In this document: in pieces, positions 144 through 5,761 of the stretch | Layout of the letters: the number at the start of each line of letters is the position of its first letter | Position numbering within the stretch: position 1 is the stretch's first letter | Origin: Bacteroidales bacterium | GTDB lineage: Bacteria > Bacteroidota > Bacteroidia > Bacteroidales > Muribaculaceae | Assembly: GCA_014800845.1 (NCBI GenBank) | Contig: JAAVFJ010000003.1 | Span: 1-64,000, forward strand | Direction of reading: 5' to 3' | Length of the DNA: 64,000 nt | Position numbers and translations under genes: made by a program | Notes under the pieces: model-generated | Seen by the model: only the letters and a program-made list of their open reading frames with translations | What the model was told of the DNA's origin: nothing | Database searches by the model: none

Positions 144-719
144 GTGAAGCCCCGTCCCCAATCCGCCATTAAGTCTCAAGCGTCAAAAATATTGGGGGCT
201 ATTCAGCGCGAAGATTTTTGCACTTCGAAATTGAATCTACGCCCGAAGGAAGCCGACGGCAAGCGCTTCGGCGACTGGGAGATGGACCTTGTCATCGGCA
301 AGGGGCAGAAAAGCGCCGTGCTGACTCTAGTGGAGAGGTCAACCAACATGTTTTTGCAGAAAAAGCTCTCGTCCAAGCAGCCCTCCCACGTGGCCAGGGC
401 CGCATGGCTTCTGCTGCTCCCCTACAAAGACCATGTCCTGACAATCACCACCGACAACGGGCTCGAGTTCAGGGAGCACGCATGGCTTGCCAAGAAAATC
501 GGAGCCACCGTCTATTGCGCCGACCTCTATTGCCCCGGACAAAAGGGAGCGGTGGAGAATGCAAACAAGCTTTTCCGCCAATATTTCCCGAAAGGCACCG
601 ACTTCCGACATGTAGAACAAAAGGAAATGGATGCCATCCAAAGGAAAATAAACAGTAGGCCAAGAGAAAAACTGAACTTCGATTCTCCAAAAAACGTGTT
701 CTTCAAGAATATTCTCTAA
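144..719 (+). mobile_element. IS30-family transposase remnant (catalytic C-terminal part; N-terminal HTH missing)
   Basis: RFGDWEMDLVIGKG, TTDNGLEF, YCPGQKGAVENANKLFRQYFPKGTD and NSRPREKLNFDSPKNVFF are IS30-type DDE motifs; no N-terminal domain in frame. Confidence 0.8.
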
Positions 720-822
720 CTTTGCACTTGCTTGTTGACTCTACAATTAACGGAACTTCCTTGTAGTCGCACAAAGGTTTGGTCGCCTGTCAGCACTACC
801 TGGAAGTTTTTGGCTTTTTATA

Positions 823-1068
823 ATGACGGAAACTCATGCAATATACAATGGTCTTTTCTCAGCGGATGAATTTCTCGTAGATTGGAGAGATCTTGAATTT
901 TCCCATCCCGAAAGGAAAATCCGCCTTGCCACATCTTTCAGTGGTATAGGTGCTATTGAGCATGCGTTCCAACGCTTAGGGCTTAATTGTGAAATTGTTT
1001 TTGCGGGTGACGTAGATGATAAATGTAAAAAATCATATTTTGCCAATTATCATATTACAGAAGAATAA
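823..1068 (+). pseudogene. truncated C5-cytosine DNA methyltransferase N-terminal fragment
   Basis: IRLATSFSGIGAIEHAFQRLGLNCEIVFAGDVDDKCKKSYFANY matches motif I region of Dcm-like MTases; stops at 81 aa, no PCQ/ENV motifs follow. Confidence 0.65.
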
Positions 1069-1312
1069 TGGCACTAAAATTATGAGCACACCATCATTAG
1101 AGCCTAATCCTCTTTTTTCCACAACCTCTGTCTTCATAGGTAGTGGCTTCGATTTAAGGTTGGGTCTTCAATCGAAATATACTGATTTTTTAGACCTATA
1201 ATTATGGAGTTGCGGCATCGCCGCCGCGCTTCCGTAAAATGAGCCTAATGTCTCATCCGGAAGGCTTCAATAGCTAACTCATTTTGAACGACTTCGATCA
1301 AAATAACTAAAT

Positions 1313-2020
1313 ATGAACAAACGCAATATGGGAATTATACTTATAGTTGCAGGTGCAATACTTCTTGTGTGCGGGATTGTTATGGTTTCTACTAATCAAC
1401 ACAATACTGTCGAACCTGCAAATACTCAACCGCAGTTGGTAGTTGTGGAGAAGCATATACACGACACACTAACTTCGCCAACCACTGTTGAGAATGGTGT
1501 ATCTCGACCCAGCGAATCAGAGAATCCAACCGTCGACAAATCCAAAGAAAAAGGCGATGCTTTTGAAGATTTCGTTGTAAATCTTCTCGCCGACTGGAGA
1601 TTGAAACTTCTCGACCGCACTCAGGACGCTGTCTCGACTGCGGGCGTCGTAGCTGAGTCATGCAAAAATCCTGATTTACACGTTCAGCAGAAACGAGGTA
1701 AGAGTGAGATTGACTATTATCTTGAGTGTAAGTATCGCTCGCAGTGGAAAGACGGAGCTGTAATCTTTGAGGATTGGCAGCTTGACCGCTATCGTCAGTT
1801 CCAAAGAAGTAATCGTCGTAAGGTTATCTTTGCTCTCGGCGTAGGTGGTACACCGTCCGCTCCTGCTTCGTTCATGCTCGTTCCTCTTGATTCCGTCAAA
1901 GGTAACTCCATTAAGCAAATCAAAACTGAGTTTGCTGTCGAGCCTTCATCTTCTGCTCTCGTCGAATACATAAACAATTACTTCTCTAAAGTATTCTCTA
2001 AAGCTAAACATAAATCATAA
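1313..2020 (+). CDS. membrane-anchored PD-(D/E)XK nuclease-like protein
   Basis: N-terminal TM (IILIVAGAILLVCGIVMV), then GDAFEDFVVNLL...SEIDYYLECKYRS (D-x(n)-ExK pattern). Confidence 0.55.
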   Translation: MNKRNMGIILIVAGAILLVCGIVMVSTNQHNTVEPANTQPQLVVVEKHIHDTLTSPTTVENGVSRPSESENPTVDKSKEKGDAFEDFVVNLLADWRLKLLDRTQDAVSTAGVVAESCKNPDLHVQQKRGKSEIDYYLECKYRSQWKDGAVIFEDWQLDRYRQFQRSNRRKVIFALGVGGTPSAPASFMLVPLDSVKGNSIKQIKTEFAVEPSSSALVEYINNYFSKVFSKAKHKS

Positions 2021-2172
2021 TGACCGACTTCGACGATTTAGATACATACAGCGGAGACGCCGAACATGATATGTGGGTGGACTTCGATAATTACGAAAAC
2101 ACCGGCGGCCCTGATGCTTTCAACGAATCAGATATTAACAACTTTATTGACAACCTTAACGACTGGGACTAA
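2020..2172 (+). CDS. 50-aa highly acidic protein overlapping the upstream stop codon
   Basis: Read from sequence: MTDFDDLDTYSGDAEHDMWVDFDNYENTGGPDAFNESDINNFIDNLNDWD; ATG shares the last A of the upstream TAA; 13 D + 3 E, no K/R. Confidence 0.55.
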   Translation: MTDFDDLDTYSGDAEHDMWVDFDNYENTGGPDAFNESDINNFIDNLNDWD

Positions 2173-2345: not shown

Positions 2346-2375
2346 AAATGCCACCGAGGGGGCTCGGTGGCATTT
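2346..2375. terminator. hairpin AAATGCCACCGAG-GGGG-CTCGGTGGCATTT, likely bidirectional
   Basis: perfect 13-bp stem between convergent genes. Confidence 0.7.
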
Positions 2376-2413: not shown

Positions 2414-2785
2414 TCAGACGGTACGGGCTTTGTATAGGCGGTAGGTGATAAGGAGCCAGATGAGGAGGTAGATGGCGCTTGTTATCACGTAGGGCTTTAC
2501 GGTCTCGCAGAGCAGGGCGAGCAGGGCGTTGAGGAGCAGGCCGATTATGCCGAAGCTAATGCAGGAGACTTTGAGCATGGTGGCTTGGCGGTCGCCTGTG
2601 CAGCATACGGCGACTCCAAACATCACTGCGGCCATTACGCCTGTGCAGATGCCTATGAGAATCTGCATGTTCTCAGCATCGATCAGGGAGGTTACGCTCC
2701 AGCCGAGCAGGCCGGATACGAGCACTACGCATATTACGGGAATCAGTTTAAACTGAAGTATTACCGGAGTTTGATTGGTTTCCAT
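2414..2785 (-). CDS. small multi-TM membrane protein
   Basis: 123 aa, about four hydrophobic segments; 7 nt downstream of the GYF_2 gene, same strand. Confidence 0.65.
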   Translation of the reverse strand: METNQTPVILQFKLIPVICVVLVSGLLGWSVTSLIDAENMQILIGICTGVMAAVMFGVAVCCTGDRQATMLKVSCISFGIIGLLLNALLALLCETVKPYVITSAIYLLIWLLITYRLYKARTV

Positions 2786-2792
2786 AGTGCCC

Positions 2793-3161
2793 TTATTTCA
2801 CCTCGGGTTTTGGTGACAGGAGTATGATTTTGTTTATTTCGGGAACATTGCATGCCATCTGCCATCCGGACATGCCGGGATGCCACACTAAGGTGTTGTC
2901 GGTGATGCTGCCGTTGGCTATGAGTTTAGTCATTTCGGCAGTGTTCAGCGGGCCGGCCTGACGGTTGTCGACCACGGTGTACCATTGAGTGTTGGTCAAT
3001 GGAGCGCTGGCACACCCGCTCTGGCCTGTTGTGCCGGCGTTTACGCCTGCCACCTGCATGTTATTCATGGTGTAGTTCATGGTGTTAACCATTTGCTGCG
3101 CCAGTGACATTCCCATGCCGAATTCTATCAGACGGTCTATGGAGCTGAAATCTGTACTCAT
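2793..3161 (-). CDS. GYF_2 domain protein
   Basis: WYTVVDNRQAGPLNTAEMTKLIANGSITDNTLVWHPGMSGWQMACNVPEI. Confidence 0.75.
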   Translation of the reverse strand: MSTDFSSIDRLIEFGMGMSLAQQMVNTMNYTMNNMQVAGVNAGTTGQSGCASAPLTNTQWYTVVDNRQAGPLNTAEMTKLIANGSITDNTLVWHPGMSGWQMACNVPEINKIILLSPKPEVK

Positions 3162-3191
3162 TTCTGTGGGGTGTTAGAGTTAATAAACCTA

Positions 3192-4583
3192 TTAGGGCAT
3201 GGGGGGCGGAGGCACGGGGCAACCGGCAGGCATGGGGGGAGCGAAGATGCATGCGAGTTCGGGCACCTGTCCGGCGGGGAGCCACTGCGACATGCCCGGA
3301 GCCCATACGAATGTGTTGGCGTTCATCTGTCCCTGAGCTACCATCTGAGTGAGCGTGCTCACGGGGTAGGGGCCGTACTGCTGACCATTGATGGCTATGT
3401 GGTACTGGGTGTTGGTGGGTGCGCCGGGCATGGGCGGGGGTGTCTGCGCGTTGTTCTGCGCGGCCTGCTGTTGCCACTGATTGTTCATCTGCTGGCCCAT
3501 GTTGTTAACCATGCCGGCCATCTGGTTGCCGAGCGCGCCGCCTACGGCCATGCCTGTCATGAACTGTGCAGGGTTGATGCCGCTGGAGCCTGCGCCGCTG
3601 CCGAAGCTGCTGCTACCCATGCTCTTTGCGGCTGTCTGCATCACGTCGGCCTGACGGTTGAGGGCGTGCGCACCGATAAACTGCGTCTCGGTCTGGAGGC
3701 GCTGGGCACGCTGAGCTTCCTCGCGCTGGATGGCCAGAGTCTCGTCGAGATTGCGGGCGTTGATGTCCTGCATGTCGGCCAGATTCTTGACGTTGACAGC
3801 TGTCTGGGCAGCGATGGTGGCCTTCTGCTGGTCTGCCGTAACGGAGCGGAGTTCGCGGTAGCCCTCCGACTGCTTGTCCACATCGATGCGGGAGATGTCA
3901 AGGCGCTTGAGGCTCACGGCAAAGTCTTCGAGGTCCTCCTTAATGAGCGGCTTGATCATGTCGTTGATTTGGTCAAGGCGGCGCTCAATCTGGAGTACGG
4001 GGAGTTGGTGTTTCTCGGGAGCGTTTGACACTTCAGACTTGATGCGTCTTGTCACAGCGTCTTTGATCTGAGCCTTGAGCTCATCGAGAGTGAAGTTGAT
4101 GAGTCGATGAGTCTTGATGAAAGCCTGGGGATCGGCTATATTGAAGGTGAGGCTGCCGCCAACAGACATGGGCACAGCGAAGTCGAGGAATCGGGGGTCG
4201 AAGACATCAAAATAGGGTATGCCGAAGTTGAGCTTGATTACGCCGGCCAGGTTGATGTAGTAGATTTCAGCCTGGAAGGGTGACTCGCCACCGAAGGCCA
4301 TTCCCACGATAGATGAAAGCACGGGGAAGTTAGCGGTCTTGATGGTGTCATCGAAAGGACCGTAAATGAAGTCCTGCATCGTGCCGTCTTTCTGCTTGTA
4401 GACAAATACGGCGACTTCGCCATCTTTCACTCGCAGAGAGGAGCCATAGCGGATGCTGTTTTCACGGGAAGTGGAGTTAGCTTCCTGCCCTGCAGGACGC
4501 CATTTCCACACTAAATATTCTTGTTCATCGCAGCGGATAACGTTCATTAAACCGCCGCTTTTACCACGTCCAAAAAGTGCCAT
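3192..4583 (-). CDS. SPFH-domain (YdjI/virion-core-like) protein with C-terminal GYF_2 domain
   Basis: VIRCDEQEYLVWKW..., SPFH-like body, Gly/Gln/Met linker, C-terminal YHIAINGQQYGPYPVSTLTQMVAQGQMNANTFVWAPGMSQWLPAGQVPEL. Confidence 0.75.
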   Translation of the reverse strand: MALFGRGKSGGLMNVIRCDEQEYLVWKWRPAGQEANSTSRENSIRYGSSLRVKDGEVAVFVYKQKDGTMQDFIYGPFDDTIKTANFPVLSSIVGMAFGGESPFQAEIYYINLAGVIKLNFGIPYFDVFDPRFLDFAVPMSVGGSLTFNIADPQAFIKTHRLINFTLDELKAQIKDAVTRRIKSEVSNAPEKHQLPVLQIERRLDQINDMIKPLIKEDLEDFAVSLKRLDISRIDVDKQSEGYRELRSVTADQQKATIAAQTAVNVKNLADMQDINARNLDETLAIQREEAQRAQRLQTETQFIGAHALNRQADVMQTAAKSMGSSSFGSGAGSSGINPAQFMTGMAVGGALGNQMAGMVNNMGQQMNNQWQQQAAQNNAQTPPPMPGAPTNTQYHIAINGQQYGPYPVSTLTQMVAQGQMNANTFVWAPGMSQWLPAGQVPELACIFAPPMPAGCPVPPPPMP

Positions 4584-5761
4584 TATACTTTGATTTTATA
4601 TTTTGCAGCTAATTCGTTGATTTGATTAAGGAGTTTCTGATCACCGTCCAATACCACGCGGGCCTTAATAAGAATCTCCTTGGATTTCTTATAGTAAGCT
4701 TTCTGGTCAGGAGTAGCGAACAGGCCCGATTTAGACTTAGTTACGCAGGAGGTAAAGAGGTCGAAGATATCCAGCTTGTTGTTGGGTATCGGGAAACTCT
4801 CGATGATGGTTGCTCTTTTGGTATAAATGTTTTGACCAGACATTGCATCAGAAAATCCGGAAGTATGACTTTGCTTCTCATCAAGCTCGCGGAGCAGTTT
4901 TGCAAGACGCTCAGCCGAATTTGAGGTCTGAGCTTCGCCAGTCACCTCGTAGTCGCAACCACACTCGGGGCAGCAGGCGGCAAGCAGTTTTATGGGGGCA
5001 CCGCAGTGGGGGCATTTTTTAGGCTGATTGTGAGCGGCAGGAGCAGCAGCGGGAGTGGGGGGTACCTTAGCCTGAGCGTTGATTCGTTCCAATTCCTGCT
5101 TGTGCTGCAACTCTTTTTCGCGAGCTATAAGCGTCTGGCGCTGTTCATAGAGACGAGCCTCGAGAATCATCACAAATTCATCCATAGCCACACCCTCTTC
5201 CTGAGCGTTGCGAATGAGCACGTCGCGCTCCATGTCGGAGATTTCGCCGTCGGCTACTGCCGCATCAATCAGGCGGTTAAGGCGGGGGGATAGTACATTG
5301 TTGTCCTCATTGCCGGCAGCGGGGACGGCAGGGGTTGCGCCGGCAGGACCTGTCCAGGGCACAGGGGGTACAGGGGGCGCAGGAGCGTTGAGTTGAAACA
5401 GAGCGTTCACTTCGGGCACCTTATTGGCGGGGAGCCATTGCGACATACCGTTCATGAAGACCAGCGTAGCGGGAGTGAGGGAGCCTTTGCTGATCATATC
5501 GAGCAGAGTGGCGCGCTCGTAGGGACCGTAGCTCTGACCGTTAACGGCGATGCTAACACTCATCTGGGGCTCATGATTGGGCACCGGAGGAGCCGGGGGA
5601 GTGGAGAGCACACCCATGTTGTCGCGCTCTTTTACTTTCGGTTTTCTATTTTTGGCTTTATCCAGTGCAAAGGATGCGATATCGCCCAGATCCGGCATTT
5701 CACCATTGGCTATGCTTGTTGCTTTGTCAGCTAAATTTTTCAATTTATTGAAAAGTGCCAT
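4583..5761 (-). CDS. GYF_2 + TerB-like + zinc-ribbon protein
   Basis: IAVNGQSYGPYERATLLDMISKGSLTPATLVFMNGMSQWLPANKVPEV; LIDAAVADGEISDMERDVLIRNA (TerB-like); CPHCGAPIKLLAACCPECG. Confidence 0.7.
   Translation of the reverse strand: MALFNKLKNLADKATSIANGEMPDLGDIASFALDKAKNRKPKVKERDNMGVLSTPPAPPVPNHEPQMSVSIAVNGQSYGPYERATLLDMISKGSLTPATLVFMNGMSQWLPANKVPEVNALFQLNAPAPPVPPVPWTGPAGATPAVPAAGNEDNNVLSPRLNRLIDAAVADGEISDMERDVLIRNAQEEGVAMDEFVMILEARLYEQRQTLIAREKELQHKQELERINAQAKVPPTPAAAPAAHNQPKKCPHCGAPIKLLAACCPECGCDYEVTGEAQTSNSAERLAKLLRELDEKQSHTSGFSDAMSGQNIYTKRATIIESFPIPNNKLDIFDLFTSCVTKSKSGLFATPDQKAYYKKSKEILIKARVVLDGDQKLLNQINELAAKYKIKV

What the first reader, a model, noticed from the sequence alone, without database searches (positions are those of the whole stretch)
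2414..5761. Four-gene GYF_2 / SPFH / TerB-zinc-ribbon / membrane-protein cassette
Seen: three consecutive minus-strand genes carry related GYF_2 segments (GP(Y/L)...T.V(W/F)..GMS.W..A..VPE). One is fused to an SPFH protein, one to a TerB-like helix bundle plus CxxC...CxxC zinc ribbon, and one is nearly bare. A small multi-TM protein follows. Gaps are -1, 30 and 7 nt, so they probably form one operon. Established: SPFH proteins scaffold membrane microdomains. YdjI-type SPFH proteins with zinc ribbons belong to PspA-linked membrane-stress operons in Bacillus. TerB domains occur in stress and defence-linked assemblies. Inference: GYF_2 may be the shared docking module of a membrane-surface complex for envelope stress or phage response.
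Basis: partly seen in the sequence, partly recalled or inferred. Interest (0 to 1): 0.72.

Follow-up and report, generated by a model that had tools for sequence, protein, structure and literature searches.

The report
Four-gene membrane-scaffold operon with GYF modules
A rare but well-preserved four-gene bacterial operon, found mainly in Bacteroidota, appears to build a membrane-surface scaffold from a stomatin/flotillin-like protein and helpers that share a peptide-binding GYF module; it looks like a PspA-free relative of a known Bacillus membrane-stress complex, and its task in the cell has not been tested.

Summary
In detail: four minus-strand genes at 2414-5761, gaps -1, 30 and 7 nt, three carrying Pfam GYF_2 above cut-off. 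It is more than a local oddity. In 86 loci chosen only by the SPFH gene, a TerB-like/zinc-ribbon gene, the SPFH-GYF gene, a ~115-aa GYF gene and a ~114-aa four-TM gene recur on one strand, mostly in this order. The last three co-vary strongly. The cassette is patchy: 7 of 393 genomes of the order.

New findings: (1) all 84 GYF-bearing SPFH proteins flank the GYF with prolines (PPP just before in 77, just after in 75), as other GYF_2 proteins mostly do not. (2) In one nested lineage the SPFH and small proteins have both exchanged GYF for zinc ribbons, and the PPP runs are gone. (3) Extra GYF proteins join the operon elsewhere. These support GYF/polyproline as the complex's docking code; binding is inferred.

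Closest known system: B. subtilis PspA-YdjGHI. Membership fails: no PspA in this genome or in 9 of 12 other cassette genomes, no YdjH/TPM, GYF instead of C-terminal ribbons. Surroundings give no support for phage defence. The TerB label is only partly right. Best reading: a PspA-independent SPFH scaffold for membrane maintenance.

The parts
4583..5761 (-). TerB-like/zinc-ribbon protein, 392 aa: amphipathic-looking N-terminus, Pro-rich, GYF_2 (aa 71-117), Pro-rich, TerB-like helices (aa 159-231), CxxC...CxxC ribbon (aa 250-267), conserved C-terminal helical domain (aa 282-387)
3192..4583 (-). SPFH (Band_7_1) protein, 463 aa: SPFH fold, long helix, Gly/Met-rich stretch, TPPPMPG, GYF_2 (aa 394-443), polyproline C-tail (PPPPMP)
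2793..3161 (-). small 'AQQM' protein, 122 aa: conserved Met-rich N-terminal helix plus GYF_2 (aa 60-108)
2414..2785 (-). small membrane protein with four predicted TM stretches, 123 aa; recurrent partner, no known family
2346..2375 (-). 13-bp perfect stem, 4-nt loop, about 40 nt after the last gene: terminator-like hairpin with a weak T tract
   Evidence: not flagged by the stricter terminator scan

Best explanation
The operon encodes a PspA-independent, YdjI-like membrane scaffold. The SPFH protein assembles into a multimer (inferred from the SPFH fold) that displays many polyproline tails and GYF domains on the cytoplasmic face. The four-TM protein is its membrane anchor. The small Met-rich GYF protein, encoded next to the anchor, links anchor and scaffold through GYF-polyproline contacts. 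The TerB-like/zinc-ribbon protein is a peripheral regulator or sensor which in this clade has also gained a GYF domain. The likely task is organising or protecting the inner membrane under stress. Shown: operon conservation, domains, co-variation, proline/GYF coupling, the domain swap. Inferred: oligomerisation, direct GYF-proline binding, anchoring, stress function.
For: 86 loci selected only by SPFH similarity: same-strand zinc-ribbon C-domain partner in 76, small protein in 77, four-TM in 73; exactly TerB>SPFH>small>TM in 45, median gaps 20, 21 and 4 nt. Distance correlations SPFH-small 0.72, SPFH-TM 0.65, small-TM 0.75, permutation maxima 0.26 or less. SPFH fold: best PDB matches are stomatin, prohibitin, flotillin, QmcA. 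GYF matches the GltJ GYF by sequence and fold, and Smy2/GIGYF peptide complexes by fold. Proline: 84 of 84 GYF-SPFH have PP before and after the GYF; PPP before 77/84, after 75/84; small-GYF proteins PPP before 1/78; other GYF_2 proteins 3/28 and 6/28. L078: SPFH and small protein both carry zinc ribbons instead, no PPP; its sister L079 (100% support) has GYF and polyproline. Seven loci carry extra GYF proteins, including GYF-GYF and LRR-GYF, in or beside the operon. YdjI needs YdjG/H for membrane recruitment (PMC8581546).
Against: No binding, localisation or phenotype was measured. Proline-rich segments could be mere linkers, and bacterial GYF domains may bind other things; some unrelated GYF_2 proteins also have PPP nearby. 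The paired swap was seen in one lineage only, on one 4.9-kb contig. The model gives the C-tail only modest confidence (about 57-62 pLDDT), so docking is not shown. Co-variation can reflect shared descent as well as interaction. No gene in the operon is of known stress function.
Confidence: 0.5

Rival explanations
1. Stomatin-like channel regulator: the complex gathers and gates an ion channel or transporter, with the four-TM protein as a channel-associated subunit.
For: An Ion_trans channel (PF00520, 1.8e-42 for the L069 copy) lies beside or near the cassette in four loci: L069, L080, L124, L150. Stomatins regulate channels in animals (own knowledge).
Against: Only 4 of about 86 loci; none next to the cassette in the window; the base rate of such channels was not measured.
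Confidence: 0.15
2. Membrane-protein quality control: the SPFH multimer and Met-rich helices hold hydrophobic segments, and the zinc-ribbon/TerB-like protein acts as co-chaperone, like HflKC or prohibitin with proteases.
For: Met/Gly-rich helices are strongly conserved in both the SPFH linker and the small protein. A protein with DnaJ-type zinc-finger motifs is adjacent in L080 and L138, with a TerB domain in L138.
Against: No protease or chaperone is a constant neighbour; the similarity of the two Met-rich segments is weak (hhalign probability 36%).
Confidence: 0.15
3. Anti-phage or envelope-attack defence module.
For: Patchy distribution (7/393 in the order), accretion of extra genes, a GmrSD-type gene near L077, and a two-gene version on a phage-like contig (L192).
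Against: PADLOC gives no support for the four proteins, and 100 flanking genes show no defence enrichment; families found there are mostly housekeeping.
Confidence: 0.08
4. True member of the PspA (phage-shock) family acting with a PspA encoded elsewhere.
For: YdjI-type SPFH genes sit in pspA operons in Firmicutes (PMC8581546, PMC11237479); 3 of 13 cassette genomes have a PspA.
Against: No PspA in this genome or in 9 of the other 12 tested.
Confidence: 0.04

Closest known systems
Bacillus subtilis pspA-ydjGHI (YdjI SPFH complex)
   Same: Band_7_1 SPFH protein without TM segment, short operon with zinc-ribbon and membrane partners
   Different: No PspA, no TPM-domain YdjH; GYF plus polyproline in place of the C-terminal zinc ribbon; extra Met-rich GYF protein and an unrelated four-TM protein
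Other Bacteroidales SPFH operons seen here: class A (SPFH-GYF ~370 aa with a double-ribbon, one-TM partner) and class B (SPFH with four paired ribbons, 236-aa 4-TM partner, ~750-aa partner)
   Same: Same SPFH family; class A also has GYF bracketed by prolines
   Different: Different partners; the window type forms a separate clade with 100% support
Myxococcus xanthus GltJ/AgmX GYF domain (PDB 7z3c)
   Same: Closest solved GYF domain by sequence (4e-10 with the SPFH profile) and fold
   Different: GltJ is a gliding-motility protein; no SPFH or cassette relation (NCBIfam score far under cut-off)
Flotillin/stomatin/prohibitin/HflKC scaffolds
   Same: SPFH fold and long C-terminal helix
   Different: No TM anchor of its own; C-terminal GYF

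Membership tests
PspA-YdjGHI envelope-stress operon | PspA/IM30 homologue in the operon or genome | tested here: not met
   No PF04012 match in the genome; absent from 10 of 13 cassette genomes, this one included
PspA-YdjGHI envelope-stress operon | Band_7_1 SPFH protein | tested here: met
   PF13421 85.6 bits, cut-off 24
PspA-YdjGHI envelope-stress operon | C-terminal zinc ribbon on the SPFH protein | tested here: not met
   GYF_2 instead; ribbons only in the relative L078
PspA-YdjGHI envelope-stress operon | YdjH-type TPM membrane protein and YdjG-type double-ribbon TM protein | tested here: not met
   Four-TM protein has no such domain; the zinc-ribbon protein has one ribbon and no TM
SPFH/Band 7 superfamily | SPFH fold | tested here: met
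   Pfam and Foldseek to stomatin, flotillin, prohibitin
SPFH/Band 7 superfamily | Ring or cage oligomer at a membrane | not testable with these tools
   Needs biochemistry or cryo-EM
GYF_2 domain | Score over the curated Pfam cut-off | tested here: met
   Three proteins at 50.7-75.4 bits, cut-off 25.8
GYF_2 domain | Binding of proline-rich ligand | not testable with these tools
   Only the fold match to Smy2-peptide complexes and the proline flanks
TerB | Full TerB domain | tested here: not met
   Homologues match positions 78-114 of 118 where examined; weak in 23/50; no PDB TerB match
Known anti-phage systems (PADLOC) | Match to a defence model | tested here: not met
   No match for the SPFH and small GYF proteins, and only E of 0.018 or worse for the other two

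The most novel reading that the evidence does not exclude
A PspA-free SPFH membrane machine whose assembly is written in an exchangeable adaptor code: SPFH tails carry polyproline plus GYF, clients join by carrying GYF, and an operon can switch the code from GYF/polyproline to zinc ribbons in several partners at once.
Probability: 0.35. Interest if true: 0.68.

Novelty: new variant of a known kind. Interest (0 to 1): 0.52.

Why it matters
How YdjI-type SPFH proteins recruit partners is not settled. This operon gives a compact, testable answer: a bacterial GYF-polyproline docking system, with a natural domain-swap control. It also shows that YdjI-like scaffolds persist in Bacteroidota that have no PspA, which would separate the scaffold's function from that of ESCRT-III-like PspA.

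Tried and rejected
Defence context: PADLOC and Pfam on 100 flanking genes, no enrichment; only a few kinases and scattered single hits. PspA linkage: absent. Phage origin: one phage-like contig among 2.9 million (L192, recovered again as L194); the other record, MT835670, is labelled an unverified phage but its genes (ABC transporter, response regulator) look chromosomal. Plasmids: only distant SPFH proteins, best places at 24-35% identity. More ribbon-type relatives of L078 in its family: none in 6 genomes. Descent of the small protein from the SPFH C-terminal half: the Met-rich segments are only weakly alike. Fold search for the TerB-like protein: only its GYF part gives sensible matches. 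Literature: no paper found that joins bacterial GYF and SPFH operons; the 2024 PSP survey does not mention GYF.

Full report
OBSERVATION. Gaps are -1, 30 and 7 nt. Pfam confirms GYF_2 in three of them and Band_7_1 in the 463-aa protein, all over cut-off. The genome has only five GYF_2 matches and three are in these neighbouring genes. A perfect 13-bp hairpin (-21.4 kcal/mol, none of 200 shuffles as stable) lies about 40 nt after the last gene; it lacks a strong T tract, and the stricter scan did not list it.

THE TerB LABEL. The first protein has helices with the 'ADGEIS..ER' motif of TerB. The window protein reaches only DUF533 at 17.6 bits (cut-off 29.6). Of 50 homologues 23 match TerB and 28 DUF533, weakly; in the two TerB matches whose coordinates were seen, they cover the last third of the profile. 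AlphaFold gives three confident helices there and five in the C-terminal domain, but Foldseek finds no TerB in PDB. I call it TerB-like. Its GYF is a recent addition: 8 of 90 TerB-like ORFs (6 distinct proteins), all from loci close to the window lineage.

CONSERVATION. A genome-wide scan by SPFH similarity alone gave 80 loci, and family and order searches added more. After removal of duplicates, 86 loci hold an SPFH gene; one of them (L072) belongs to another class. The zinc-ribbon C-domain partner is on the same strand nearby in 76, the small protein in 77, the four-TM protein in 73; 45 show exactly TerB>SPFH>small>TM, with median gaps of 20, 21 and 4 nt. Since loci were not chosen by neighbours, this is not a selection effect, though they are the nearest relatives. 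The tree shows one clade with 100% support apart from other Bacteroidales SPFH classes, spread over Bacteroidales, Flavobacteriales and Cytophagales, with single cases labelled Massilia, Spirochaetaceae and Kapaibacterium (most are MAGs, so odd labels may be binning errors). Pairwise distances of SPFH, small and TM proteins correlate at 0.65-0.75, and the TerB-like protein at 0.31-0.39, against permutation maxima of 0.30 or less. The stable core is therefore SPFH, small protein and TM protein. Distribution is sparse: 7 of 393 genomes of the order, 2 of 396 in the phylum draw (the window's own genome is counted in both).

DOCKING EVIDENCE. Every one of 84 GYF-bearing SPFH proteins has PP just before and after the GYF domain; PPP is found before in 77 and after in 75. 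The 19 GYF-SPFH proteins of other classes looked at have the same pattern. The small GYF proteins have PPP before in 1 of 78 and after in 42 of 78. Of 28 other GYF_2 proteins from the same family, 3 and 6 do; one of those is itself an SPFH fragment. So prolines are not simply a companion of any GYF. In L078 both the SPFH and the small protein carry zinc ribbons instead, with no PPP run, while their N-terminal parts stay typical. Its sister L079, with 100% support, has GYF and polyproline. The six class B SPFH proteins, with four paired ribbons, show no PPP in the linker part examined. Extra GYF proteins (GYF-GYF, LRR-GYF, GYF-TM) sit in or beside the operon in L080, L135, L150, L153, L169, L173 and L175. 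The GYF domain is closest to that of GltJ, and by fold it matches GYF-peptide complexes. Direct binding remains inferred; the predicted tail has pLDDT of only about 57-62.

MECHANISM. Foldseek places the SPFH part with stomatin, prohibitin, flotillin and vault proteins, so a multimeric scaffold is likely. It has no TM segment. B. subtilis YdjI also lacks an anchor and needs the membrane proteins YdjG/H (PMC8581546). By analogy the four-TM protein is the anchor, and the small protein, whose gene is nearly coupled to it, is the link. The function is most likely membrane maintenance under stress, by analogy only.

COMPARISON. PspA-YdjGHI is the nearest known system, but PspA, YdjH/TPM and the C-terminal ribbon are missing. 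The operon may work like it, but is not a member. The PSP surveys describe Band-7 and ribbon fusions and do not mention GYF (PMC11237479, PMC9239133). I found no paper on this operon in an open-access library, which is not proof that none exists.

VERDICT. A real, conserved and, as far as I could find, undescribed operon; a new variant of the SPFH membrane-scaffold kind; moderate interest, chiefly for the testable GYF/polyproline code.

Noticed in passing
L192:5122-7275 (IMGVR_UViG_3300013426_000183): A phage-type contig (exonuclease, MazG, guanylate kinase) carries a two-gene version: a double zinc-ribbon/TM2 protein followed by SPFH-GYF. Why a phage would carry an SPFH scaffold is unexplained.
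   Followed up: partly
L069:11998-12861, L080:7852-8676, L124:15862-16728, L150:12193-13053: Voltage-gated-type Ion_trans channels lie next to or near the cassette in four separate genomes.
   Followed up: partly
L080:6359-7846 and L138:6486-8216: Proteins with repeated DnaJ-type CxxCxGxG motifs flank the cassette in two distant genomes; the L138 one also has a TerB domain (8e-11).
   Followed up: partly
L067:5357-6601: The SPFH gene seems frameshifted inside its GYF region and the small and TM genes are missing; decay or assembly error.
   Followed up: no
L074:8064-15740: The TerB-like gene is separated from the other three by what look like the thrS-infC-rpmI-rplT genes and lies on the opposite strand.
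   Followed up: no
L083, L085, L086, L096, L105, L106: Second SPFH operon type: SPFH with four paired zinc ribbons, a ~236-aa four-TM protein and a 720-803-aa one-TM protein, no known family for the partners.
   Followed up: partly
window 144-2172: Contig end with a transposase-like fragment, a truncated C5 DNA methylase (823-1068) and a one-TM protein with a weak PDDEXK-like match (1313-2020).
   Followed up: no
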